NCBI GenBank assembly: GCA_001516055.1
Contig: LOEZ01000066.1
Coordinates: 1-64,000, forward strand
Source of the DNA: Gracilibacter sp. BRH_c7a
Lineage (GTDB): Bacteria; Bacillota; Desulfitobacteriia; Desulfitobacteriales; Syntrophobotulaceae
Direction: 5' to 3'
Length of the DNA stretch: 64,000 nucleotides
A program made the translations under genes and the position numbers. The notes below the pieces were generated by a model. That model did no database searches and was not told where the DNA came from. It saw only the letters and a program-made list of their open reading frames with translations. Position 1 is the first letter of the stretch. Each line of letters begins with the position of its first letter. This document shows, piece after piece, positions 5,432-18,583 of the stretch.

Positions 5432-6738
5432 GCGAATTCTTAATCGGACTTTTCGGGATAATATTTTTCTTTGGATTAATAATTCTGCGCATGCCAATAG
5501 CCTATGCTATGGCATTAGTAGGGTTTGTTGGCTTTAGCATCCTAACTTCCATGCCAGCATCTTTGGATATGGTAGCGAAAGAGATTTATAATACTTTTAC
5601 TTCCTATTCTTTAAGTGTTATTGCTATGTTTGTGTGGATGGGCTTTCTGGCATATTATTCAGGAATTGGAACCAGTCTCTATGTTTTTGCCTATAGAATG
5701 ATGGGCCATCTACCTGGTGGTCTGGCAATTGCCACTCAAGCAGCTTGTGCAGTCTTTGGAGCAATATGCGGTTCCAATACCGCTACTGCTGCTACCATGG
5801 CGGCAATTGCCCTGCCCGAGATGGATAAGTATAACTACGACAAGTCATTATCTACCGCCAGTATTGCTGCAGGAGGAGTATTAGGGGTAATGATTCCCCC
5901 GAGTGTTATTTTCATTCTGTACGGTATGGCCACGGAACAGTCTGTGGGCACTTTGTTTATGGCAGGAATTATTCCTGGTATTTTACTAATGTTCTTATAT
6001 ATGCTTACGATATATCTACTGACTTTGCGTAACCCAAGCTTAGGGCCAACCGGACCCAAATCAAGTTGTCGAGAACGAATTAGTTCTCTTAAAGGAGGGC
6101 TGGGAGAAGCCCTGATAGTATTTGCCCTTTCGATTGGCGGTCTTTTTGCCGGTTGGTTTACCCCGACTGAGGCAGGTGCTGTCGGAGCAGGGGGAGTATT
6201 ATTTGTTAGTCTATTAGAGAAGCGGCTTAGTTGGGGAAAGTTAAAAAAGTCGCTAATCGATACCACTCGTACCACGGCAATGATTATGCTAATGATTGCC
6301 GGAGCTATAATCTTTGGCAGGTTTATGGCCATTAGCAGAGTACCGTTTGAACTGGCAAATTTGGTAGGATCTCTGCCCCTACCTCCGTTTGCCATTATGG
6401 GGATGATTCTAGTAATCTACTTTATCCTAGGCTGTTTTATTGACGCTTTAGCCTTAGTTTTACTAACCATACCAATATTCTTCCCAGTGGTAGTTAATGC
6501 CCTGGGGTATGATCCTATTTGGTTTGGAGTGGTTGTAGTCTTAGTAGTAGCCATGGGTGTTATAACCCCTCCGGTAGGGATGAACGTATATATTATTAAA
6601 GGTGTTGCCCCGGAGATTCCTTTAGAAACAATATTTAAAGGTATATGGCCTTTCCTCGGTGCTATAATAGTGTGCATAATTCTGCTAATGATTTTTCCGG
6701 GCATTGCTACTTTCTTGCCTGAATTGCTGACGAGATAA
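5428..6738 (+). CDS. dctM: TRAP transporter large permease (DctM)
   Basis: The 436-aa, about 12-helix transport subunit of the TRAP system. Family motifs include FGAICGSNTATAATMAAIALPEM (about residues 110-132), the GGVLGVMIPPSV loop (about 150-161), FTPTEAGAVGAGG and the C-terminal repeat GVITPPVGMNVYIIKG. It overlaps dctQ by 4 bases. Its last 32 bases overlap the end of the convergent GH84-type gene, so the two transcripts are complementary at their 3' ends. Confidence 0.95.
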   Translation: MSEFLIGLFGIIFFFGLIILRMPIAYAMALVGFVGFSILTSMPASLDMVAKEIYNTFTSYSLSVIAMFVWMGFLAYYSGIGTSLYVFAYRMMGHLPGGLAIATQAACAVFGAICGSNTATAATMAAIALPEMDKYNYDKSLSTASIAAGGVLGVMIPPSVIFILYGMATEQSVGTLFMAGIIPGILLMFLYMLTIYLLTLRNPSLGPTGPKSSCRERISSLKGGLGEALIVFALSIGGLFAGWFTPTEAGAVGAGGVLFVSLLEKRLSWGKLKKSLIDTTRTTAMIMLMIAGAIIFGRFMAISRVPFELANLVGSLPLPPFAIMGMILVIYFILGCFIDALALVLLTIPIFFPVVVNALGYDPIWFGVVVVLVVAMGVITPPVGMNVYIIKGVAPEIPLETIFKGIWPFLGAIIVCIILLMIFPGIATFLPELLTR

Positions 6739-8245
6739 AATCAAGTATTTCTGTTCCAATTTTCAAGTTATTACTCTTAAGGGCTTGAATCTTAGATTCT
6801 AGGTCGTTTTCCATGACTGATTTTTGCGGATCATTCACAGATAAATATAAATAATCCAGGGCTTGGAGAGCAACTTTTCCTTCTTCGCCAAGCAGATTTA
6901 GCCAAGGGTTAATCTCTGTTAGAAGCTCCTTATTACTAATAGTCTGTCTAAGAGAGTTGGGGAGGGTGCTCAACGATTCCAGTTCCTGACGAAGATTAGT
7001 TTCGCTAGCTCCTCGTTGTCCATTTTGGTAATCTTGCCAGAACTGAGCGGTCAGGTCAAGGAAGTATGAATTGATATCATCATTAAGCAGGCTTGGACTT
7101 GAATACAGACAGAATCTTTGGAAAGCTGCTGTATTGACAATTCCTTCAGTGTTTTCAAGTGCTAGCTCCCAGGCTTTCTGAGAATTATAGGAAGTAGGGT
7201 TATACAGATACTGTCCAATTGTTGCTAAGGAAATTTTCGAGGATTCAGGTTGAATCATCGGATTTGCTATTAGTCCACTTACATAGGAAGATAAATCAGG
7301 TGAGCGGTTCTCCAAGGGACCCATAAACAATTGAGGAGCTTTTCGCACCACATATGTATAATCATTTACTGGATAATTGTCCCAGATAAGAGGTTTCCTG
7401 CCGATTAGGTTGGTTACTTGTTGGACTTGATCACTGGTTATCTCTTTGTTTAAAACCCATGAACCTGTCCAAATAACTTGAATTGAAGATTCTAGATAAG
7501 AGCGGATCCCAGACCAATAAGGACTATCATTTAGTCCATAATAGTCTGTCGGGGCAAACCATAGCTTGAATTTAGGGTCTTTTTGTTTTTCTTCCAGGAG
7601 TAATTGATTAGCAAGATCAATATGGGCTAAGTGGTAATCTGAGCCGTAGACCTTTTCATCAATTGGTTTCAAAGAATGTTCAACATCATCAAAAGAAAGC
7701 ATAAATGTCTGTACACCTATTGATTGCAATTGTTCAAGCTTATTTCTTAAACGCTGTACATCCGAGTCAGAAGTAAAAGTAATGGAATTTGCTATCATGC
7801 TTGAAGTTAAAGTTTCACCGGGGAGGGGTGCTGGAATACCAGGAGAAATTGAGTAAACAAAATCTATACCATTTTTCTCAGCACTCTTGATTAATTGCTT
7901 CATCTGAGAAAGACGTAAATCTGAGTATAGGTCTCCCCATTGTGTTCGCTGATAAGGATCATCTTTAGGTGCATAGATATAGGTATTAAAGTGATTCTGG
8001 CTCATGAATTCAAGCATTTTCATTCGTTGTCCCATAGTCCATGGTTCGCCATAAAAACCTTCGATTACCCCGCGGATAGCGAAAGTATCACTGAGAACAT
8101 CCTCTTTAGGCTTAGAATCAGAATCAATCGGTTGCTGGTCATTAGGGGTAACATTCGGAGGTCCCGATTGATCGAGTTGACCCGGAATAAAGATCATTCC
8201 AAGAACTATAATTATGATTAGAATTAATATATTTTTCTTTTTCAT
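6707..8245 (-). CDS. Membrane-anchored GH84-type beta-N-acetylglucosaminidase domain protein
   Basis: Predicted extracytoplasmic glycosidase of the O-GlcNAcase/hyaluronidase family, which removes GlcNAc by substrate-assisted catalysis. After an N-terminal TM anchor (about residues 5-22) and a Pro/Asp-rich linker, the catalytic domain starts with RGVIEGFYGEPW (about 58-69). It continues with NTYIYAPKDDPYQRTQW and the acidic pair in MLSFDDVEHS, matching the GH84 catalytic Asp-Asp. KLWFAPTDYYG and WTGSWV, then IWDNYPVND, also match. A helical C-terminus of about 130 residues follows. AAAGGAAAG lies about 5 bases before the ATG. Substrate unknown; peptidoglycan or host-type GlcNAc are possible. 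Confidence 0.85.
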   Translation of the reverse strand: MKKKNILILIIIIVLGMIFIPGQLDQSGPPNVTPNDQQPIDSDSKPKEDVLSDTFAIRGVIEGFYGEPWTMGQRMKMLEFMSQNHFNTYIYAPKDDPYQRTQWGDLYSDLRLSQMKQLIKSAEKNGIDFVYSISPGIPAPLPGETLTSSMIANSITFTSDSDVQRLRNKLEQLQSIGVQTFMLSFDDVEHSLKPIDEKVYGSDYHLAHIDLANQLLLEEKQKDPKFKLWFAPTDYYGLNDSPYWSGIRSYLESSIQVIWTGSWVLNKEITSDQVQQVTNLIGRKPLIWDNYPVNDYTYVVRKAPQLFMGPLENRSPDLSSYVSGLIANPMIQPESSKISLATIGQYLYNPTSYNSQKAWELALENTEGIVNTAAFQRFCLYSSPSLLNDDINSYFLDLTAQFWQDYQNGQRGASETNLRQELESLSTLPNSLRQTISNKELLTEINPWLNLLGEEGKVALQALDYLYLSVNDPQKSVMENDLESKIQALKSNNLKIGTEILDFISSAIQARK

Positions 8246-9217: not shown

Positions 9218-9298
9218 AAAAAACGAATTTGTGTTTAGAGTAATTATAAATAAATGGTAAAATTTATACTAATTATGGGGAGAGGAGGAGATGAGCGC

Positions 9299-10249
9299 AT
9301 GAAAAAAGCTGTTCTTTTTTTAACTTTATTATTAATAATGGTTAGTTCTATTGTTGCAGGAACACTTGCTATGTATACAGTTTCCATAGATAAACTTGCT
9401 GAAGGCAGCGTTGTGGCCAAAGAATTTATCTTTGTCGGCGAAGGGACGGATACTTTCCAGCAGGGCATAAAAATTGCACCGTCGGAGACTGTTGCCTGGC
9501 AATTCAAAGTCAAAAATTATGAAAATCATGTAATTTCAGAAACTGCTATGTATTACAAGCTGACATTCAACGTCTTGGCGTCAGGCGGTAAACAGGCAAT
9601 CGAACCGTTGACCGTTACTGTTAAAGATCCGAACGGCCAGATATTAAACAGGGTTACCGGAGTGGGAACCTTTGATGTCCTGGATGCCTTTCCGTTGTCG
9701 GCAAATGGTCAGGAGAAAGGCTATGTGGTAGAGATACATTGGCCGGATGACGATGCCGATATCAACTACGCAGGCAGCCATTACGGAACCACAGTTAATG
9801 TCGATGCCATCGCTTCCCAGGTCCCGTTCAGCGGGACAAATCCTCCGCAGCCGAAGCAGATTAACGTGAAATATGAGACTACAGTACCTTGGCAAAATGG
9901 GCATAGCGGTATTTATAAGTATGATTATAAAGTCACTATCACCAATAACTCCGCTGAACCGATAGAAGATTGGACCATCGCCTTTAACCTTGCTGACGAT
10001 AAACTGACCAGTGCCTGGAATGCCATTTTAGTGTCCGGTTCGCCTCAGGGATCCTACACCTTTGTCAATCCGGCCTATAACAATCCCGCTACAGACCATA
10101 TTCTGCCCGGTCAAAGTGTATCTTTTGGAGGTCATGCTCAGGGAATGGGCACGACAGCCATAAACAATATCAGTATAGGCGGAAGCAATACAAGTCTTAT
10201 CACTAACATTGACCTGACTTGTGAATTTGGCAAGCCATCCCTGAACTAG
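9299..10249 (+). CDS. Camelysin/TasA-like exported protein with a C-terminal CBM2-like domain
   Basis: Predicted cell-surface or fibre-type protein that can bind polysaccharide. The start is the ATG at 9299, 8 bases after GGAGGAG; an earlier ATG at 9254 lacks an RBS. The signal peptide ends in IVAGTLAMYT, the form processed by SipW-type peptidases. Residues about 30-180 form a camelysin/TasA-like beta domain (EGSVVAKEFIF, then KIAPSETVAWQFKVKNYE). Residues about 190-310 look like a CBM2-type module: EDWTIAFNLADDKLTSAWNA, then the YNNPATDHILPGQSVSFGG block. A paralogue without the CBM lies downstream. This fusion is unusual; polysaccharide binding is inferred. Confidence 0.8.
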   Translation: MKKAVLFLTLLLIMVSSIVAGTLAMYTVSIDKLAEGSVVAKEFIFVGEGTDTFQQGIKIAPSETVAWQFKVKNYENHVISETAMYYKLTFNVLASGGKQAIEPLTVTVKDPNGQILNRVTGVGTFDVLDAFPLSANGQEKGYVVEIHWPDDDADINYAGSHYGTTVNVDAIASQVPFSGTNPPQPKQINVKYETTVPWQNGHSGIYKYDYKVTITNNSAEPIEDWTIAFNLADDKLTSAWNAILVSGSPQGSYTFVNPAYNNPATDHILPGQSVSFGGHAQGMGTTAINNISIGGSNTSLITNIDLTCEFGKPSLN

Positions 10250-10444: not shown

Positions 10445-10487
10445 AGTGATAGACGGAATTATAATAAATTAAATTTTGGAGGTAAAT

Positions 10488-11018
10488 ATGAAAAAACTAC
10501 TAATTTCTTTTGCTCTTATATTACTTTTTTCTACATCTCTAATCGCAGGGACTCTTGCTATGTATACGACCACCATTGACGATATTGCCGAGGGCAGCGT
10601 GGTGGCTAAAGAATTCATCCTGTTGGAAAGCGGGACGGATACCTTTACGGAAAATGTAAAAATAGCTCCGGACGAAACAGTAGAGTATGACTTCAGCGTT
10701 AAAAACTATGACGGCAGCGTAGTAAGTGAGACCGCCATGGATTTAGGTTTGAAAATCGATGTTCTGGCTGCGGACGGTAAAGGCGTAATCGCACCGTTAG
10801 TCGTGACTGTTAAGAACTCAGATGACGAGACGGTTGGCACCTTGACCACCAATGGCACCATTGAATTTGCAGACGAATTTGAACTCAGTACCGACGGTCA
10901 GGAAAAAACCTTTACCGTATCGGTGAACTGGCCCAGTGATGACGATGTAGACATCGAATATGCCGGAGCTAATTATGGTACAGCCCTGCAAGTGGCTGTG
11001 ACCGGAACCCAGAAATAA
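10488..11018 (+). CDS. Camelysin/TasA-like exported protein
   Basis: 176-aa exported protein of the CotN/camelysin/TasA type, a likely SipW substrate and matrix or coat component. The signal peptide ends LIAGTLAMYT, and the mature part repeats the family blocks of the upstream gene (EGSVVAKEFIL, then KIAPDETVEYDFSVKNYDGS, and INYAG/IEYAG before NYGT). The two proteins are clearly paralogous over about 175 residues; this one ends where the CBM begins in the other. The start is the ATG at 10488, 5 bases after GGAGG. A strong terminator follows. No metallopeptidase motif was seen. Confidence 0.85.
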   Translation: MKKLLISFALILLFSTSLIAGTLAMYTTTIDDIAEGSVVAKEFILLESGTDTFTENVKIAPDETVEYDFSVKNYDGSVVSETAMDLGLKIDVLAADGKGVIAPLVVTVKNSDDETVGTLTTNGTIEFADEFELSTDGQEKTFTVSVNWPSDDDVDIEYAGANYGTALQVAVTGTQK

Positions 11019-11074: not shown

Positions 11075-11114
11075 ACTATAAGCAAAATCAGAGTCATGTT
11101 AGATGTTTCTAATT

Positions 11115-11171: not shown

Positions 11172-11714
11172 ATGTCGTCAACAAAGTATACAACTCCGGA
11201 ACAAATAGCAGAAATGCGTCGGGAACTACTGCACGAAAAACATAAATTACATAAGTTACAAGGTCAGGATCTCTCCTGGAAAAGTCGTCTGCCTTCAGGA
11301 AAATCTATGATACAACTCAGCAGCTGGATTGTTTTTTCGGCACTTGTTCTACTGCTTGTTACGTCGATTATATCCATCAATCTTGCAAAGAACAGGGGAG
11401 AAATCCCCAATATTTGGGGATTTCAACTTTTTTCTGTAGAGTCAGGCAGTATGGAGCCTACACTTCCGATTGGATCGCTTATTGTAAGCCGAATTCCTAA
11501 AGAGCCCGGAAGTCTTACCATTGGCGACATCGTTACTTTCAGAACCATATCAGGTATTATTGTAACTCATCGAATTATTGAGGTTATCTTCAATTATGAT
11601 GGGACCGTTGCTTACCGCACAAAAGGGGATAATCCCAAAAATTCCCCCGATCCAGAACTGCTGACCGAAGACAGGGTGATTGGGTTATTGGTGGCTAAAA
11701 TACCTTTAACCTGA
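11172..11714 (+). CDS. sipW: Signal peptidase I of the ER/SipW type
   Basis: Membrane-bound serine protease that removes the signal peptides of TasA/camelysin-like proteins. One TM helix (about residues 50-72) precedes the catalytic domain. SGSMEPTLPIGS gives the nucleophile Ser93, and THRI gives His133, which replaces the Lys of ordinary bacterial signal peptidases as in SipW and eukaryotic SPases. KGDNPKNSPDPE carries the conserved Asp residues. The protein stops soon after the catalytic fold and lacks the C-terminal helix that many SipW proteins have. RBS AGAGGT lies about 7 bases before the ATG. First gene of a three-gene operon and the only active-looking protease of the locus. Confidence 0.92.
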   Translation: MSSTKYTTPEQIAEMRRELLHEKHKLHKLQGQDLSWKSRLPSGKSMIQLSSWIVFSALVLLLVTSIISINLAKNRGEIPNIWGFQLFSVESGSMEPTLPIGSLIVSRIPKEPGSLTIGDIVTFRTISGIIVTHRIIEVIFNYDGTVAYRTKGDNPKNSPDPELLTEDRVIGLLVAKIPLT

Positions 11715-11737
11715 TATAGAATGAATGGGAGCAAAAT

Positions 11738-12703
11738 ATGATGAATCTTCCTGAACACGTTGTATTTATGGAAAAAGTTCAATCCGTTGAACATATTGTC
11801 CATCAGGGTAAAGAACCCCAGCGTGTCTTAAAAGAGATTAGCTTGTTAATAAGAAGAGGGCAAGTATGGGGATTTAACGGTTCATCTCGCCTGGAAGTAA
11901 AGCTTTTGTTAGAAATTATAGCCAACATCAGACCGTATAACAGCGGCCGATGCGTGTTAATTGAACGAGGCATGCCCCAGCATAAAAGAATAATTCTGAA
12001 CCACGTTTTTTATATTGGTAGTTCAGAAATGATGTATAACAATATGAATGTCCTGGAATTCCTGATGTTTGTGACGGCCAAGTCCAAAATCAACAAAGTT
12101 GAACTCCAGGAACAGATTTTTGAATTCCTTATTGACAGCGGACTGGGACATATTTCTTTGACTTCAAACAATCTGCTGACCCAGGAAGAAAAGGCAGTTA
12201 TCTTATTAACTGCTGCTGCATACTCAAATAGCCTGATAATCGTCTTTAACCTGCCTGAATATGAATTCGACGAAATTCTAGTCCCAGCGATCGCTAAAAT
12301 AGCAGCTTGGATAAGTCAAAAGGGCAAAACCATCATACTCGGAACCACAGACTGTCTTTTAATCGAAAAGGCTTGTTCCCATACGGGCATATTATTTAAT
12401 GGCAAAATTATCTACGCCGACACGGTGGAAGACTTCCGTCAGAAGTTTGATAAAGTTGAAGTGATAGTTAGTGATAAAAATATAATCGCTATGATGGATA
12501 TCCTTGCTATATTACTCCCGGACCATAAGCTGTCCATCAAAAATAACCGCCTTATGATTAGTCGTAGTGGTTCTGCTGAAAGTGACCCCGGTATGATTTA
12601 CCAGATGATAACGTCGTTTGGTTGGATACCAGAACGACTGGAAGTCAATCCTAAAACCGTGCAAAATGCCTATGAGGAGCTTATTCAGCAGCATGATTTA
12701 TAG
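11738..12703 (+). CDS. Degenerate ABC-ATPase-like protein (probable pseudo-ATPase)
   Basis: The 321 residues follow the layout of an ABC-2 exporter ATPase, but every nucleotide-binding motif is worn away. The Walker A position reads GFNGSSRLEV (residues 45-54), with Arg51 in place of Lys and no Ser/Thr after it. The signature motif reads LLTQE. Walker B is IIVFNLPEYEFD, with Asn171 and Leu172 where Asp-Glu should be. The switch His is Asp (GTTDC). The frame is long and open, so this looks like a kept pseudoenzyme rather than a dead gene. It lies 23 bases after sipW and overlaps the next gene by 11 bases. It may act as a scaffold or regulatory partner of that membrane protein. Confidence 0.75.
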   Translation: MMNLPEHVVFMEKVQSVEHIVHQGKEPQRVLKEISLLIRRGQVWGFNGSSRLEVKLLLEIIANIRPYNSGRCVLIERGMPQHKRIILNHVFYIGSSEMMYNNMNVLEFLMFVTAKSKINKVELQEQIFEFLIDSGLGHISLTSNNLLTQEEKAVILLTAAAYSNSLIIVFNLPEYEFDEILVPAIAKIAAWISQKGKTIILGTTDCLLIEKACSHTGILFNGKIIYADTVEDFRQKFDKVEVIVSDKNIIAMMDILAILLPDHKLSIKNNRLMISRSGSAESDPGMIYQMITSFGWIPERLEVNPKTVQNAYEELIQQHDL

Positions 12704-14099
12704 GGATAATTATTTTAGAAAAGAACTCCGGCAAGCCTACACAGAAAACAGAACAAGTAAACGCAGAAAAATCTCTTCAGCTCTTTTCCTGGGACTTTTT
12801 TCATTTGCCCTATTCTTTGTGCTGCAAACCATACAGGAAAGTGTCTTGGCTGATATTGTGCCGCAAATCCTGCAGCCAAGTTTCTTTTCCACCATCACCA
12901 TCTATATTCATATTGCTTTTATTTTCAACACAGTTTTTTTTATTTTCTATTATGACTACCTTTTTTTTGCCGAAATCAGGAGAAATTCCTGGTATCTTTT
13001 AATCCAAATGGGTTATCGACCTATCATAATGCTATTTTCTAAACTTTCTGCTCTTTTGTACTCTGTATTTCTGGTCTACAGTGGGGGTTTTCTTTTTACG
13101 ATCTTTCTCACAATTTTCCTGAAATACACATTAATACTGGCCTATATGCCCACCCTTTACTTGGCAGGTCTTACCGACATTTTCTTGATTAGTATCCTCG
13201 CATTAACTTTTTCCCTATATACTCAAACAGTAGTCAACGCACGATATTGGATCTTTCTATCTGCTATCCTTATTCTGATCTTGAAAATAACGCTGAGACA
13301 GTATAATATCCTTTCCAATCGAGTATCCATGCAGAACTTGTATAACTTGTTCGATCTCAGCCTTTCTCCGTACATGGCGGTCGGATTTGGGATCATGGTA
13401 ATCTGCTGTCTGACATGCCTGATACGGGCTAAAAACTTAGCCAAGTATTATTCTCTTAATTCCAGCCAATTTTCTCTGCCGGCAAATGCCGCTGTGATCT
13501 ATCTCGATTCCAAGACAGGAAAGCAGATATTAGTTGGCAACAGAAAATCACCATTATGGCATAGTAAGATTATTGCCACTACAACTACCGTATTTCTGAT
13601 TGTATTCATCTGCGCCGCCCTTGTATTTAACGTATTCGTTATTCTGATTAATACCTCTACGCCAGGCCAGGAGGTAAGTATCCGTGGGGTAATCCCCTTT
13701 GTCTTCCGTTCGGCTACCATGGAACCTGAGATTAGGCTAAACGACTTGGCATATTTCCAAAAAATAGACAACCAATACCCGGTTGCTGAAGGGGATATCA
13801 TCCTTTTTAGAGAAGATAACTTGGTATATGTGGAAAGAGTTATTGAAAAAACAGGAAAACGGCTAACAGTAGATATAGATAAATATCCGCCGATGTCTCA
13901 ACCAGGAGCGATGCTGAAAACAGTGCCAAGGGAATACGTACAGGGCATCTACGTTGGAAGGAACCGCTGGTTGGGGGCCCTGATTTTATTTGCCAATACT
14001 ATTATCGGAAGGCTGCTCTTACTGCTAGTTCCTGCTATTCTATTGTTTTATCATGCGCAGATCTATGGGTATTTTAAGAAGGATAAATCAAAAGGCTGA
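12693..14099 (+). CDS. ABC-2-like membrane protein fused to an inactive signal-peptidase-like domain
   Basis: 468 aa. Residues about 28-245 hold six hydrophobic helices in the arrangement of an ABC-2 type permease. A second membrane segment (about 293-320) leads into a C-terminal domain that mirrors SipW. GVIPFVFRSATMEPEIRLND has Thr342 where SipW has the catalytic Ser; the SipW THRI His position is VERV (Glu381). A final TM helix (about 428-453) follows. Both catalytic residues are gone, so peptidase activity is unlikely. The ATG at 12693 overlaps the upstream gene; GAGGAG lies 13 bases before it, so translation is probably coupled. The fusion suggests a complex with SipW or its substrates. 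Confidence 0.75.
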   Translation: MIYRDNYFRKELRQAYTENRTSKRRKISSALFLGLFSFALFFVLQTIQESVLADIVPQILQPSFFSTITIYIHIAFIFNTVFFIFYYDYLFFAEIRRNSWYLLIQMGYRPIIMLFSKLSALLYSVFLVYSGGFLFTIFLTIFLKYTLILAYMPTLYLAGLTDIFLISILALTFSLYTQTVVNARYWIFLSAILILILKITLRQYNILSNRVSMQNLYNLFDLSLSPYMAVGFGIMVICCLTCLIRAKNLAKYYSLNSSQFSLPANAAVIYLDSKTGKQILVGNRKSPLWHSKIIATTTTVFLIVFICAALVFNVFVILINTSTPGQEVSIRGVIPFVFRSATMEPEIRLNDLAYFQKIDNQYPVAEGDIILFREDNLVYVERVIEKTGKRLTVDIDKYPPMSQPGAMLKTVPREYVQGIYVGRNRWLGALILFANTIIGRLLLLLVPAILLFYHAQIYGYFKKDKSKG

Positions 14100-14243
14100 T
14101 GAGTAGTCGAGTTTAGACCAATATATGATTGCTTAAGTCAAAAATATCTGTTAAGATATGAATGTGAAAAAAAGTATTAAGTGATTTTAAGGAAAAGTAT
14201 TAATCAAAGCTAATAGAGTCGTAAAATTTACCATGTATCTGCT

Positions 14244-14340
14244 CGCACATAATCGTGTTTTGGGGATACAAGGCTTGTTACTTTACCTGACCGCAAGGTA
14301 TACCAAGCGGGAAGGCGCGCAGCGGTATGTGTGTTTTTTA
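14244..14340 (+). ncRNA. Structured leader RNA candidate upstream of the hyd cluster
   Basis: Nested pairings are visible: CGCACATA (14244-14251) with TATGTGTG (14326-14333); GCTTG (14273-14277) with CAAGC (14304-14308); and TACCT (14284-14288) with AGGTA (14296-14300) around the loop GACCGCA. The outer stem is followed at once by TTTTTT. The shape is that of a riboswitch or attenuator placed before a gene set. It does not match any riboswitch core I can recognise. Function unknown. Confidence 0.45.
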
Positions 14341-14362
14341 TTGTACATTGTTTTGCCGTGTT

Positions 14363-14405
14363 GCTCCCTTTCTGTATAAATCTGCGGAAGGGGAGCTTTT
14401 ATTTT
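14363..14405 (+). terminator. Intrinsic terminator in the hyd leader
   Basis: GCTCCC / GGGAGC, extended by TT/AA across one bulged G, with a 17-base loop and a TTTTATTTT tail. It lies about 80 bases before the first hyd gene and downstream of the structured segment, as expected for transcription attenuation. Confidence 0.65.
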
Positions 14406-14482
14406 GAATATTTATAAATGTAATTATGAATTAAGTCCTGAAATTGAATAGTAAATTGATTTAGGAAATGGAGAGAAAGCGG

Positions 14483-14728
14483 ATGGATAAACGAATTGGC
14501 ATTGTAGGCATTGTGGTTGAAGACCTGTCCTGTGCAGAGCGGGTTAATTCTGTTTTACATGAATATGCAGGACTGATTGTCGGGAGGATGGGAATTCCCT
14601 ACAGAGAACGTGGAGTATCGGTTATATCTTTGATTGTCGACGGCAGCAATGATGACATCAGTGCCCTAACAGGTAAACTGGGTAGAATCCAGGGGGCCTC
14701 GGTTAAGTCCATGGTTACTAAGAATTAA
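14483..14728 (+). CDS. TM1266-family iron-only hydrogenase system putative regulator
   Basis: 81-aa ACT/ferredoxin-like fold protein of the family found next to hydEFG genes and thought to regulate them. The typical sequence is visible: RIGIVGIVVEDL at the N-terminus, then VNSVLHEYAGLIVGRMGIPY and SVISLIVDGSNDDISALTGK. The start is taken at the ATG at 14483, 8 bases after GGAGAG; the ATG at 14468 has no RBS. It is 80 bases upstream of hydE and likely cotranscribed. Regulation is the family's proposed role and is not shown by this sequence. Confidence 0.9.
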   Translation: MDKRIGIVGIVVEDLSCAERVNSVLHEYAGLIVGRMGIPYRERGVSVISLIVDGSNDDISALTGKLGRIQGASVKSMVTKN

Positions 14729-14808
14729 AAAGAGCGTTGTGATTCTATGTTAAGTTTTCACTAGAAATCAAACTATCAAGCACATCCGTGTTTACAGGAG
14801 TGTGACCA

Positions 14809-15888
14809 ATGCAACTTATATCTAAAAACGATTCTGAATTTACCCGATATCTGAATACAGCCACTAAGAAAGAACTTTCCGAGATAACCCGGCATTTCTG
14901 TATGGAAGCATCACCGGAGGAGTTGTCTGCGCTTGCTTACTGTGCCAACAGACTGCGGGAAATCCATTATGGTCGTAGGGTCTATTTCCGGGGTCTAATA
15001 GAATTTTCCAACCACTGCCGAAAAGACTGCTATTACTGCGGTATTCGCAAAAGCAATTTAAACGCTCGCCGCTACCGTCTATCGGCAGAGGAAATTCTTA
15101 ATTGCTGTCAAAATGGCTACAACCTTGGGTTTCGCACCTTTGTACTGCAAAGCGGCGAGGATAGCTATTTTACGGATGAAAGACTGTGCGCCATCGTGAC
15201 TGCAATCAAACAACGTTTTCCGGATTGTGCGCTGACGCTTTCAATAGGCGAGCGCAGCCGTGATTCCTATCAACGGCTTTATGATGCAGGTACCGACCGC
15301 TACCTTTTGCGCCATGAAACGGCCGATGAGGCACACTACGGAAATCTCCATCCGCCCGTGATGAGTCTCCGTAACCGCAAACAGTGTCTGTCTAGCCTAA
15401 AAGAAATAGGTTATCAGGTTGGGGCGGGCTTGATGGTAGAGTCTCCGTATCAAACTTTTGATACCTTGGCCGAAGATCTGATATTATTGCGGGAACTTAA
15501 ACCGCATATGATTGGTGTCGGCCCTTTTATTCCGCACAGGGATACAAGGTTTGCAGGACTTGACACGCCTTCCTCCGAGAGAACGCTCGTTCTGCTGTCG
15601 CTGGTCCGAATCATGTTGCCTAAAGCCCTGCTGCCCTCTACCACAGCGCTTGGTACTATCGATGCCCTAGGGCGGGAAAAAGGCCTGAAAGCCGGTGCCA
15701 ACATTGTAATGCCTAACTTATCTCCCGTAGAGAATCGCTCGGATTATTCGCTCTACGATAATAAGATATGTACGGGAGAGGAAGCGGCAGAGTGTCTCCA
15801 CTGCCTGACAAACCGCATCGTGTCCGCCGGATATGAGCCTGATTTTTCTCGTGGGGATCATGTGGATTTGTTAAAAAGGGAGGGATAA
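14809..15888 (+). CDS. hydE: [FeFe] hydrogenase maturase HydE (radical SAM)
   Basis: Radical SAM enzyme needed to build the diiron subcluster of [FeFe] hydrogenase. The CX3CX2C cluster motif is C70-C74-C77 (CRKDCYYCG). Further blocks of the TIM barrel are visible: FVLQSGEDSYF, LSIGERS, RYLLRHETADEAHYGNLHP, GAGLMVESPYQT, and GVGPFIPHRDTRFAG. 359 aa is normal for the family. The gene and its neighbour hydF have a visibly GC-richer codon choice than flanking genes, which suggests a different origin. It lies 5 bases before hydF. The hydrogenase itself is not in the window. Confidence 0.95.
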   Translation: MQLISKNDSEFTRYLNTATKKELSEITRHFCMEASPEELSALAYCANRLREIHYGRRVYFRGLIEFSNHCRKDCYYCGIRKSNLNARRYRLSAEEILNCCQNGYNLGFRTFVLQSGEDSYFTDERLCAIVTAIKQRFPDCALTLSIGERSRDSYQRLYDAGTDRYLLRHETADEAHYGNLHPPVMSLRNRKQCLSSLKEIGYQVGAGLMVESPYQTFDTLAEDLILLRELKPHMIGVGPFIPHRDTRFAGLDTPSSERTLVLLSLVRIMLPKALLPSTTALGTIDALGREKGLKAGANIVMPNLSPVENRSDYSLYDNKICTGEEAAECLHCLTNRIVSAGYEPDFSRGDHVDLLKREG

Positions 15889-15893
15889 TTAGT

Positions 15894-17138
15894 ATGCAAA
15901 GTATGAATGAAACTCCAATGGCCAACCGCTTTACCATCGGTCTCTTCGGCAGGCGCAACGCCGGAAAATCTTCTCTGATCAATGCTCTTGCCGGTCAGCC
16001 AGTTGCTGTTACCTCCGAAGTGGCGGGTACAACGACTGACCCAGTTTACAAAGCTATGGAACTTTTGCCCCTGGGGCCAATTGTTTTAATCGATACTGCC
16101 GGACTTGATGACACCGGTGAGCTTGGTGCATTGCGGATTGAAAAAACCTACGAAGTGCTGCGCAAAACAAACCTAGCACTCGTGGTTGTCGATGCCAGAG
16201 ACGGCATTACGAAGTTTGAGACGGAATTTATTTATGAATTAGTCCAGCGGAAAATCCCATCTGTCTGCGTTTTAAACAAATGCGACAGGTATATTGCAGA
16301 TGAAGAAAAGGTAAAAGGCATAAGAGAGCTTATCAAAATACCGGTGGTAAGCGTAAGTGCGCAGGATAGTACGGGAATCGACCAACTCAAAGAACAGATT
16401 ATCGCCAGCTCAAATTATGAGGATACTCAGCCTGAGCTGGTTGGAGACCTGATTAGGGCAGGGGATATTGCTGTGCTTGTCACTCCCATTGATTCAGGGG
16501 CACCTAAGGGGCGACTGATTTTGCCTCAGCAGCAAACCATCCGTGCTATTATGGAAAACGATGCAGTGGCGATCGTTGCCAAAGAGCATGAGCTTAGACT
16601 AACGCTGGAACGGTTAAAGGCTCCTCCTGCCATTGTCATTACAGATTCGCAGGCCTTTTTTAAGGTTTCCGCTGACACGCCCAGGGGTGTTCCCCTGACG
16701 TCCTTTTCTATTCTGTTTGCGCGGCAGAAGGGAGATCTTGCGGAAATGATACGGGGTATCAAACGCATCGAGCAGCTTAAGGCGGGAGACAAGGTACTCA
16801 TTGTCGAGGGATGCACCCATCATCGTCAGGCAGATGACATCGGAAAAGTAAAAATTCCACGCTGGATAAAACAGGTTACGGGGGGTGATATCGCGTTTGA
16901 ATGGGCTTCCGGCGCTCATTACCCGAAGGATATCACGCAGTATGCTGTGATTGTGCATTGCGGTGGCTGTATGCTTAACCGCAGAGAGATGCAGTACCGG
17001 GTAGAAAAAGCACGCGACCAAGGCGTTTATATCACAAATTACGGGATACTCATTGCTTATGTGGAAGGCATCCTGCCGCGTGCTCTGCAGCCTTTTCCCG
17101 AGGCAAGGCTTGCTCTTGATGCTAACGAGCTGCAGTAA
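15894..17138 (+). CDS. hydF: [FeFe] hydrogenase maturation GTPase HydF
   Basis: Scaffold GTPase that receives the diiron precursor made by HydE and HydG and loads it into the hydrogenase. The N-terminal G domain has the P-loop GRRNAGKSS (residues about 19-27), switch GTTTDPVYK, G3 DTAGLDD and G4 NKCD. The C-terminal Fe-S region has EGCTHHRQ and HCGGCMLNRREMQ, the three-cysteine set of the family. AGGGAGG lies 9 bases before the ATG. 414 aa matches HydF. It sits between hydE and hydG with very short gaps, so the three are surely one operon. Confidence 0.95.
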   Translation: MQSMNETPMANRFTIGLFGRRNAGKSSLINALAGQPVAVTSEVAGTTTDPVYKAMELLPLGPIVLIDTAGLDDTGELGALRIEKTYEVLRKTNLALVVVDARDGITKFETEFIYELVQRKIPSVCVLNKCDRYIADEEKVKGIRELIKIPVVSVSAQDSTGIDQLKEQIIASSNYEDTQPELVGDLIRAGDIAVLVTPIDSGAPKGRLILPQQQTIRAIMENDAVAIVAKEHELRLTLERLKAPPAIVITDSQAFFKVSADTPRGVPLTSFSILFARQKGDLAEMIRGIKRIEQLKAGDKVLIVEGCTHHRQADDIGKVKIPRWIKQVTGGDIAFEWASGAHYPKDITQYAVIVHCGGCMLNRREMQYRVEKARDQGVYITNYGILIAYVEGILPRALQPFPEARLALDANELQ

Positions 17139-17161
17139 TAACTTTGAAAGGGGCCACTAAT

Positions 17162-18583
17162 ATGTACAACGTAAAATCTAGAGATTCCAATGAATTTATC
17201 GATGATATAGAAGTATTATTATCCATCGCCGAGGCCAAAGAGATTGTTAAGCAAAAAACGGAAATTGACCGGATTTTGACCAAGGCCAGGGAGTGTAAGG
17301 GCCTTTCACATAAAGAAGTAGCTGTGTTATTGGAAATTGACGATGATGAAACCCTGAATAAAATGTATCAAATAGCGAGAGAAATCAAGGAAAAAATTTA
17401 TGGAAAAAGGATTGTGCTGTTTGCACCGCTGTATCTATCCAACTATTGTGTGAATAATTGTCAATACTGTGGCTACAAATGTTCCAACAAAATCGGTAGG
17501 CATAAGCTTACCCAAGAGGAATTACGGGAGGAAGTACGGGCTCTGGAAGCTATGGGGCACAAACGGCTGCTACTTGAGGCTGGTGAGGACGACAAAAATT
17601 GTCCGATCGATTATATCTTGGAGTGCATTCAAACCATCTACAACGAACAATTCGATAATGGTGCTATCCGTAGAGTCAATGTTGATATAGCTGCGACCAC
17701 CGTGGAAAACTATCGAAAACTGAAAGACGCCAAAATCGGTACTTATATTCTGTTTCAAGAAACCTACCATAAGCCTACCTATCTTGGCTTACACAGTGGA
17801 CCCAAGCGCAATTACGAGTGGCATACCGAGGCCATGGATCGGGCGATGCAGGGCGGCATTGACGATGTGGGGATTGGTTCCCTGTACGGCTTGTACGATT
17901 ACCATTATGAAACAGTAGCAATGATGATGCATGCTGAGCATTTGGAAGCTGCTTACGGGGTAGGCCCCCATACCATTTCCTTTCCAAGGCTGCTGCCAGC
18001 GGAAGGCATTGATTATGACAGATTTCCACTGGTCAAAGACCGAGATTTCAAAAAAGTGGTAGCTGCTATGCGCTTGGCGGTCCCTTACACAGGAATGATT
18101 GTTTCTACGCGAGAGGGAATTGATTTCCGCAAAGAACTTCTGGAAATCGGTATGTCCCAAATGAGTGCCGGTTCCTGCGTTGGAGTCGGAGGATACGCTG
18201 AGAGGGAGATTGTGAATGAAACCGGTGTTGAGGAAAAACCGCAATTCTATCTTGCAGATCATAGAAAACCTGCTGAAGTAATCAAGTGGCTGGTCAGGGA
18301 TGGTTATATTCCAAGCTACTGCACGGCATGCTACCGCCAGGGCAGGACGGGAGATCGCTTCATGCCGCTTGCTAAATCAGGGCAGATCGGAAATTACTGT
18401 CTGCCAAATGCACTTCTTACCTTTGAAGAATATCTACAAGACTATGCAGACGATGAATTTCAGGATATCGGCCGGAAACTAATCGATGATGAGATTCTGA
18501 ACGTTCCCGATGAAAAACAAAAGGTAACGGCACTAGATTATCTAAACCGAATTCGCAGTGGAGAAAGAGACCTGAGGTTTTAA
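17162..18583 (+). CDS. hydG: [FeFe] hydrogenase maturase HydG (tyrosine lyase)
   Basis: Radical SAM enzyme that cleaves tyrosine to give the CO and CN ligands of the H-cluster. The SAM cluster motif CX3CX2C is in NYCVNNCQYCGYKC (about residues 95-108). The C-terminal auxiliary cluster motif is CTACYRQGRTGDRFM with a further Cys about 22 residues later (GNYC). The start is the ATG at 17162, 8 bases after AAAGGGG; a TTG at 17144 overlaps the RBS and is unlikely. 473 aa fits the family. Its end lies 5 bases from the end of the convergent azlD gene. Confidence 0.95.
   Translation: MYNVKSRDSNEFIDDIEVLLSIAEAKEIVKQKTEIDRILTKARECKGLSHKEVAVLLEIDDDETLNKMYQIAREIKEKIYGKRIVLFAPLYLSNYCVNNCQYCGYKCSNKIGRHKLTQEELREEVRALEAMGHKRLLLEAGEDDKNCPIDYILECIQTIYNEQFDNGAIRRVNVDIAATTVENYRKLKDAKIGTYILFQETYHKPTYLGLHSGPKRNYEWHTEAMDRAMQGGIDDVGIGSLYGLYDYHYETVAMMMHAEHLEAAYGVGPHTISFPRLLPAEGIDYDRFPLVKDRDFKKVVAAMRLAVPYTGMIVSTREGIDFRKELLEIGMSQMSAGSCVGVGGYAEREIVNETGVEEKPQFYLADHRKPAEVIKWLVRDGYIPSYCTACYRQGRTGDRFMPLAKSGQIGNYCLPNALLTFEEYLQDYADDEFQDIGRKLIDDEILNVPDEKQKVTALDYLNRIRSGERDLRF

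What the first reader, a model, noticed from the sequence alone, without database searches (positions are those of the whole stretch)
11738..12703. Pseudo-ABC-ATPase conserved beside sipW
All five nucleotide motifs are altered: Walker A Lys to Arg51, Walker B Asp-Glu to Asn171-Leu172, degenerate signature (LLTQE), and the switch His to Asp. The gene still has an intact frame, an RBS and coupled translation with the next gene. This suggests a selected, non-hydrolysing partner of the membrane-pseudo-peptidase protein.
Basis: partly seen in the sequence, partly recalled or inferred. Interest (0 to 1): 0.7.

Follow-up and report, generated by a model that had tools for sequence, protein, structure and literature searches.

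The report
Dead ABC-ATPase in a SipW secretion cassette
In some Clostridia-related bacteria, an ABC-transporter motor that has lost every part needed to use ATP is kept by selection beside a membrane partner carrying a dead copy of a signal-cutting enzyme, always next to the working enzyme and its likely surface-fibre substrates, which suggests an ATP-free scaffold for making those fibres.

Summary
The gene at 11738-12703 encodes an ABC-type nucleotide-binding protein of the NosF/GldA/DrrA (ABC-2 exporter) kind whose nucleotide site is gone: no P-loop Lys or Ser/Thr, Walker B Asp to Asn, catalytic Glu to Leu, LTxEEK in place of LSGGQ, no switch His. One detail was wrong: the His aligns with Thr204, not Asp205.

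It is not decay in one strain. All 24 relatives examined (19 at 52-62% identity, five found through the permease) lack the same residues, yet selection is purifying (dN/dS mostly 0.07-0.26). All sit in one cassette: SipW-signal (TasA/camelysin-like) secreted proteins, an intact SipW peptidase, the dead ATPase, and an overlapping ABC-2-like permease fused to a dead SipW-like domain. In 73 genomes of the order, cognate SipW and dead ATPase occur in the same 17 and never apart.

Most likely: an ATP-independent, NosFY-shaped scaffold that presents pseudo-peptidase domains outside and docks SipW inside, guiding SipW substrates into fibres. Closest precedents: Streptococcus SipA (dead peptidase essential for pili) and NosFY (fold). 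Inactivity and conservation rest on sequence; the mechanism is inferred. No description of such a module was found in the open-access papers searched.

The parts
9299..10249 (+). secreted protein with SipW-type signal (AGTLA|MYT) and a C-terminal CBM2 carbohydrate-binding domain; ORF opens at 9254, likely start ATG 9299
   Evidence: Pfam CBM_2 E 1e-10; Tyr at P2' in the aligned relatives; same position in most loci
10488..11018 (+). secreted TasA/camelysin-like protein with SipW-type signal, likely fibre subunit and SipW substrate; ORF opens at 10476, likely start ATG 10488
   Evidence: related to the N-terminal part of the preceding protein (39-55% across loci); Tyr at P2' 20/20; no family match, so 'TasA-like' rests on signal and context
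11172..11714 (+). SipW-type (ER-type) signal peptidase with intact Ser and His and a conserved cytoplasmic N-tail (YTTxEQIEEMR); ORF opens at 11103
   Evidence: NCBIfam sigpep_I_arch above cut-off, SipW E 6.5e-25; Ser and His 25/25; N-tail in all 25 relatives, outside the match in 7 non-linked SipW
11727..11731 (+). GGGAG ribosome-binding site of the pseudo-ATPase gene
   Evidence: read directly
11738..12703 (+). pseudo-ABC-ATPase (NosF/GldA/DrrA-like nucleotide-binding domain plus C-terminal regulatory-like domain) without the catalytic residues
11870..11896 (+). degenerate P-loop GFNGSSRLE (residues 45-53); acidic residue at 53 in 25/25
12176..12193 (+). pseudo-signature LTQEEK (residues 147-152)
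12245..12262 (+). pseudo-Walker B FNLPEY (residues 170-175); Asn171 in 25/25
12344..12352 (+). former switch region TTD (residues 203-205); His replaced by Thr204
12693..14099 (+). ABC-2-like (NosY-like) membrane protein with six predicted TM helices, fused to TM - SipW-like S26 domain - TM; overlaps the pseudo-ATPase gene by 11 nt
   Evidence: NCBIfam SipW E 1.3e-11 over residues 304-458; NosY best Foldseek match (weak), LexA/SPase folds for the C-terminal part
13716..13718 (+). Thr342 in place of the S26 nucleophile Ser (Thr 23/25, Ser 2/25)
13833..13835 (+). Glu381 in place of the S26 general-base His (Glu 23/25, Gly 1, Ala 1)

Best explanation
The gene encodes the cytoplasmic half of an ABC-2-shaped complex that no longer uses ATP. 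Two copies of the pseudo-ATPase would sit under two copies of the permease, as NosF sits under NosY. The permease carries a catalytically dead SipW-like domain on the outer face. The intact SipW next door, which has a conserved cytoplasmic N-tail found only in SipW proteins linked to this module, would dock on the complex. The complex would act as a fixed scaffold and chaperone: the dead peptidase domain holds the signal peptide or fresh N-terminus of the SipW substrates (the TasA-like and CBM2-bearing proteins) so that cleavage by SipW is coupled to ordered fibre assembly, much as S. pyogenes SipA is needed for pilus assembly. Shown here: loss of both catalytic sites, purifying selection, strict linkage of the parts, ABC ATPase fold, SipW-type signals with Tyr at P2'. 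Suggested only: the ABC-2 fold of the permease. Inferred: complex formation, docking through the N-tail, fibre formation and the chaperone role.
For: Nucleotide residues lost in all 25 family members. dN/dS mostly 0.07-0.26. SipW - pseudo-ATPase - permease order kept in 25 of 25 loci, with SipW-signal proteins on either side. Cognate SipW (E below 1e-77) and pseudo-ATPase occur in the same 17 of 73 genomes of the order, neither alone. Seven other genomes have an ordinary SipW (E 1e-23 to 1e-26) whose match starts after the N-tail and no pseudo-ATPase (five neighbourhoods read). The helix after the P-loop (0.44 bits) and the Q-loop/transmembrane interface (0.61 bits) are the most conserved stretches, against 1.36 overall. 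Fold: ABCA4, NosF and PmtCD ATPases (Z 12-14); permease best match NosY, C-terminal domain LexA/SPase and SipA folds. Substrates have Tyr at P2' 20/20, and TasA's aromatic P2' residue is what E. coli LepB cuts poorly and SipW cuts (PMC10269814 abstract). SipA precedent: dead SPase essential for pilus polymerisation (PMC4049620).
Against: No complex was modelled and no experiment exists. The pseudo-ATPase model is poor around the P-loop (pLDDT below 50 at 33-48 and 50-88) and the permease model is weak (mean 65.7; no Foldseek match with E at or below 0.001). The TasA-like protein matches no TasA or camelysin family or structure, so 'fibre' is inferred from signal and context. Two distant permease relatives keep Ser at the nucleophile position, though not the His.
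Confidence: 0.45

Rival explanations
1. The pseudo-ATPase pairs with a canonical ABC ATPase encoded elsewhere, giving a heterodimeric transporter with a working site, as in ABC exporters with one degenerate site.
For: The genome has canonical ABC ATPases related at about 20% identity; heterodimers with one degenerate site are common among ABC exporters (general knowledge).
Against: No second ATPase gene belongs to the cassette in the loci read. Degenerate NBDs of known heterodimers usually keep the P-loop Lys and bind ATP (general knowledge); here both the Walker and the signature faces are gone, so neither composite site could be complete.
Confidence: 0.1
2. The module is a sensor or regulator: the complex senses SipW substrates or signal peptides in the membrane and passes the signal to the cytoplasm, rather than helping assembly.
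For: A membrane complex with a peptide-binding-like domain outside and an ATP-free NBD inside suits a sensor; B. subtilis SipW itself is reported to have a second, regulatory role (own knowledge).
Against: No regulator or DNA-binding partner was recognised in the cassettes.
Confidence: 0.2
3. The complex clears signal peptides or uncleaved preproteins from the membrane, similar in purpose to the S. aureus ABC transporter SAUSA300_0351-0353 that makes signal peptidase dispensable.
For: An ABC transporter can act in signal-peptidase-dependent secretion (PMC5013292).
Against: That transporter needs its Walker A Lys (K44A abolishes function); here no ATP use is expected, so active extraction has no motor.
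Confidence: 0.12
4. The protein still uses a nucleotide or another ligand through a non-standard site.
For: The family is strongly conserved, with its own invariant residues at the old motifs (Gly48, Leu147, Glu151, Asn171, Pro173), and no binding assay exists.
Against: No residue known to hold phosphate or Mg remains, and an acidic residue sits at position 53 of the former P-loop in 25 of 25.
Confidence: 0.08
5. The gene is a decaying ATPase without function.
For: All catalytic residues are lost.
Against: Intact frames in 25 of 25, dN/dS mostly 0.07-0.26, invariant residues, linkage kept across families.
Confidence: 0.02

Closest known systems
NosFY(D) ABC-2 transporter (PDB 7o0y, 7o0z, 7o12, 7o17)
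   Same: Separate ATPase with a C-terminal regulatory domain plus a six-helix permease; among the best fold matches for both proteins
   Different: NosF binds ATP (7o17 is an ATP-bound E154Q form); NosY has no signal-peptidase domain (general knowledge); different substrate and neighbours
Streptococcus pyogenes SipA (PMC4049620)
   Same: Signal-peptidase fold with lost catalytic residues, encoded beside surface-fibre genes and essential for fibre polymerisation
   Different: SipA has Asp and Gly for the bacterial Ser-Lys dyad, stands alone and serves sortase-built pili; here the dead domain is SipW-type, fused to an ABC-2-like permease, with a dead ATPase and an active SipW
Bacillus SipW-TasA matrix fibre system
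   Same: Dedicated SipW peptidase beside substrates with SipW-type signals and an aromatic residue at P2'
   Different: The NCBIfam Bacillus SipW model starts at about residue 70 of the window protein, so it has no such N-tail; no full-length permease relative in 348 genomes of the class of Paenibacillus ginsengihumi
S. aureus ABC transporter SAUSA300_0351-0353 (PMC5013292)
   Same: ABC transporter functionally tied to signal peptidase
   Different: Needs an intact Walker A Lys; separate permease and membrane protein genes, repressed by Cro/CI; homology to the present proteins not tested

Membership tests
ABC transporter ATPase (functional) | NBD fold of ABC ATPases | tested here: met
   phmmer 1vpl E 1.7e-14; Foldseek and VIA-align matches to ABCA4, NosF, PmtCD with Z 12-14 over most of the model
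ABC transporter ATPase (functional) | Walker A GxxGxGK[ST] | tested here: not met
   no Lys at the position in 25/25
ABC transporter ATPase (functional) | Walker B Asp and catalytic Glu | tested here: not met
   Asn 25/25; Leu/Phe/Val 25/25
ABC transporter ATPase (functional) | LSGGQ signature | tested here: not met
   LTxEEK or close variants
ABC transporter ATPase (functional) | switch His | tested here: not met
   Thr, Gln, Lys, Pro or Cys
ABC-2 exporter permease (NosY-like) | six-helix ABC-2 membrane domain | tested here: inconclusive
   helices at about 21-49, 65-86, 111-142, 152-175, 181-201, 228-254; NosY top match with probability 1.0 but E 0.014
SipW / ER-type signal peptidase (gene at 11172) | S26 family match with Ser and His in place | tested here: met
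   TIGR02228 above cut-off; Ser and His 25/25
Active S26 peptidase (C-terminal domain of 12693-14099) | catalytic Ser and His | tested here: not met
   Thr 23/25, Ser 2/25; His replaced by Glu 23, Gly 1, Ala 1
TasA/camelysin fibre subunit (10488-11018) | SipW-type signal with aromatic P2' | tested here: met
   Tyr 20/20
TasA/camelysin fibre subunit (10488-11018) | family profile or structure match | tested here: inconclusive
   no significant Pfam, NCBIfam or PDB sequence match; fold not predicted
SipA-type assembly factor | requirement for fibre polymerisation | not testable with these tools
   needs a mutant

The most novel reading that the evidence does not exclude
A signal-peptidase complex of a new kind: an active SipW held by an ABC-2-shaped complex in which both the motor (ATPase) and the outer peptidase domain are conserved pseudoenzymes, working as one ATP-free membrane machine that processes and assembles surface fibres.
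Probability: 0.3. Interest if true: 0.8.

Novelty: new variant of a known kind. Interest (0 to 1): 0.62.

Why it matters
It would show that an ABC-2 transporter architecture can be kept for its shape alone, with no ATP use, and that bacterial signal peptidases can have dedicated pseudo-ATPase and pseudo-peptidase partners, a bacterial parallel to multi-subunit signal peptidase complexes. The module is compact (three genes plus substrates), present in a named species (Anaerobacterium chartisolvens), and gives clear predictions about how SipW-dependent surface proteins are made outside Bacilli.

Tried and rejected
Plasmid collection searched by protein: no match. Rfam on the window: none at gathering threshold. 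Permease profile against solved structures by sequence: none. TasA-like profile against solved structures: only chance-level matches. Class of Paenibacillus (348 genomes): no full-length permease relative, only a short S26 match. The search of the phylum of the Anaerobacterium genome gave Anaerobacterium itself and three places that repeat earlier ones. Weak hits of the permease profile at E 1e-5 to 1e-8 have short open frames (198-272 aa); the two whose loci were read (L067, L068) are stand-alone SipW-type proteins, not fusions. Papers: no description of such a module, but only open-access papers were searched. Considered and rejected: pseudogene decay (dN/dS) and loss in one strain (family-wide loss). 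Searches sampled genomes, so the distribution given is a lower bound.

Full report
Observation. The ORF at 11738-12703 is real and intact. It has weak but clear similarity to ABC ATPases (1vpl E 1.7e-14; GldA model E 3.5e-14 across residues 27-314) and no Pfam hit. Two details change: the switch His aligns with Thr204, not with Asp205, and Arg51 is only one of seven residues seen at the former Walker A Lys.

Family. Homologues were found in 17 of 73 genomes of the order, counting the window's own, elsewhere in the phylum and in named records including Anaerobacterium chartisolvens. Twenty-five sequences were aligned. None has a Walker A Lys. Asn replaces the Walker B Asp in 25 of 25; Leu, Phe or Val replaces the catalytic Glu; LTxEEK or a close variant replaces LSGGQ; no His remains in the switch. 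An acidic residue (Glu 24, Asp 1) sits at position 53 in the former P-loop. Ten loci were reached by searching with the permease alone, five of them new, and each has a dead ATPase beside the permease, so the absence of intact copies is not only an effect of searching with a dead query.

Selection. Nei-Gojobori dN/dS of the pseudo-ATPase gene is 0.07-0.26 in pairs with measurable dS, apart from one very close pair at 0.44 (dS 0.09); the permease, SipW and substrate genes give similar values. The most constrained parts are the helix after the P-loop and the Q-loop/transmembrane interface, as expected if the protein still sits under a permease but does not use a nucleotide.

Cassette. In 25 of 25 loci the order SipW - pseudo-ATPase - permease is kept, and in all 19 measured relatives the last two genes overlap by 11-26 nt. 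Upstream, or downstream in the two most distant loci (L062, L063), lie secreted proteins with a SipW-type signal; in a few loci (L033, L039, L040) other sequence lies between these and SipW. Both substrate sets have Tyr at P2' in 20 of 20 (the L039 entry of the CBM set is the TasA-like protein of that locus, because its CBM gene is cut by the fetched stretch). For TasA, an aromatic residue at P2' is what E. coli signal peptidase cuts poorly and SipW cuts (PMC10269814, abstract). One substrate in the window carries a CBM2 domain.

Partner. The downstream protein has a six-helix region whose best fold match is NosY (E 0.014, so only suggestive) and a C-terminal SipW-like domain (NCBIfam E 1.3e-11). 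The nucleophile is Thr in 23 of 25 and the general base is Glu, Gly or Ala in 25 of 25, while the stand-alone SipW keeps Ser and His in 25 of 25. That SipW-type peptidases use Ser and His is taken from general knowledge.

Linkage. Within 73 genomes of the order, 17 have the pseudo-ATPase, and the same 17 have a SipW matching at E below 1e-77. Seven further genomes have a SipW only at 1e-23 to 1e-26, whose match starts at model position 24-41, after the conserved cytoplasmic N-tail YTTxEQIEEMR. Five of these neighbourhoods were read; none has the module, and L077 and L081 have a SipW-signal protein beside their SipW. So ordinary SipW exists without the module, and the module goes with one SipW subtype that has an extra cytoplasmic tail. 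Pairwise distances of pseudo-ATPase and permease correlate at 0.96; shared ancestry contributes to this and it is no proof of contact.

Structure. The pseudo-ATPase model (mean pLDDT 72, poor over most of residues 1-88) matches ABCA4, NosF and PmtCD over the NBD and the C-terminal regulatory domain (Z 12-14). This places it with ABC-2-type exporter ATPases. The region of the P-loop is not resolved, so nothing is claimed about its geometry.

Interpretation. I go further and propose an ATP-free scaffold that couples SipW cleavage to fibre assembly, with SipA of S. pyogenes as the functional precedent (PMC4049620). A clearing role as in S. aureus SAUSA300_0351-0353 is less likely because that system needs its Walker A Lys (PMC5013292). 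The chaperone role, fibre formation and the docking of SipW's tail are inferences.

Novelty. Pseudo-signal-peptidases in fibre assembly and degenerate NBDs are both known kinds. An ABC-2-like complex in which the ATPase and the fused peptidase are both conserved pseudoenzymes, tied to SipW, was not found in the papers searched. I rate it a new variant of a known kind.

Noticed in passing
window 14468-18583: Directly downstream lie genes that look like a [FeFe]-hydrogenase maturation set (regulator-like 14468, HydE-like 14809, HydF-like 15894, HydG-like 17144), named from reading the translations only.
   Followed up: no
window 6707-8245 (-): A predicted membrane-anchored or secreted beta-N-acetylglucosaminidase-like protein upstream on the other strand, named from reading only.
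   Followed up: no
L063 8001-9413; L064 5995-7479: Two permease relatives keep Ser at the S26 nucleophile but have Ala or Glu for the His, perhaps an earlier stage of peptidase loss.
   Followed up: partly
L062 6847-7155, L063 11637-11927: Small secreted proteins (96-102 aa) with a SipW-like signal (MAVYTKTLP) and, by eye, a short CBM5/12-like tail accompany the module in the two most distant loci.
   Followed up: no
window 14100-14440: Intergenic stretch between the cassette and the hydrogenase genes with a GC-rich segment that looks structured; no Rfam family at gathering threshold.
   Followed up: partly
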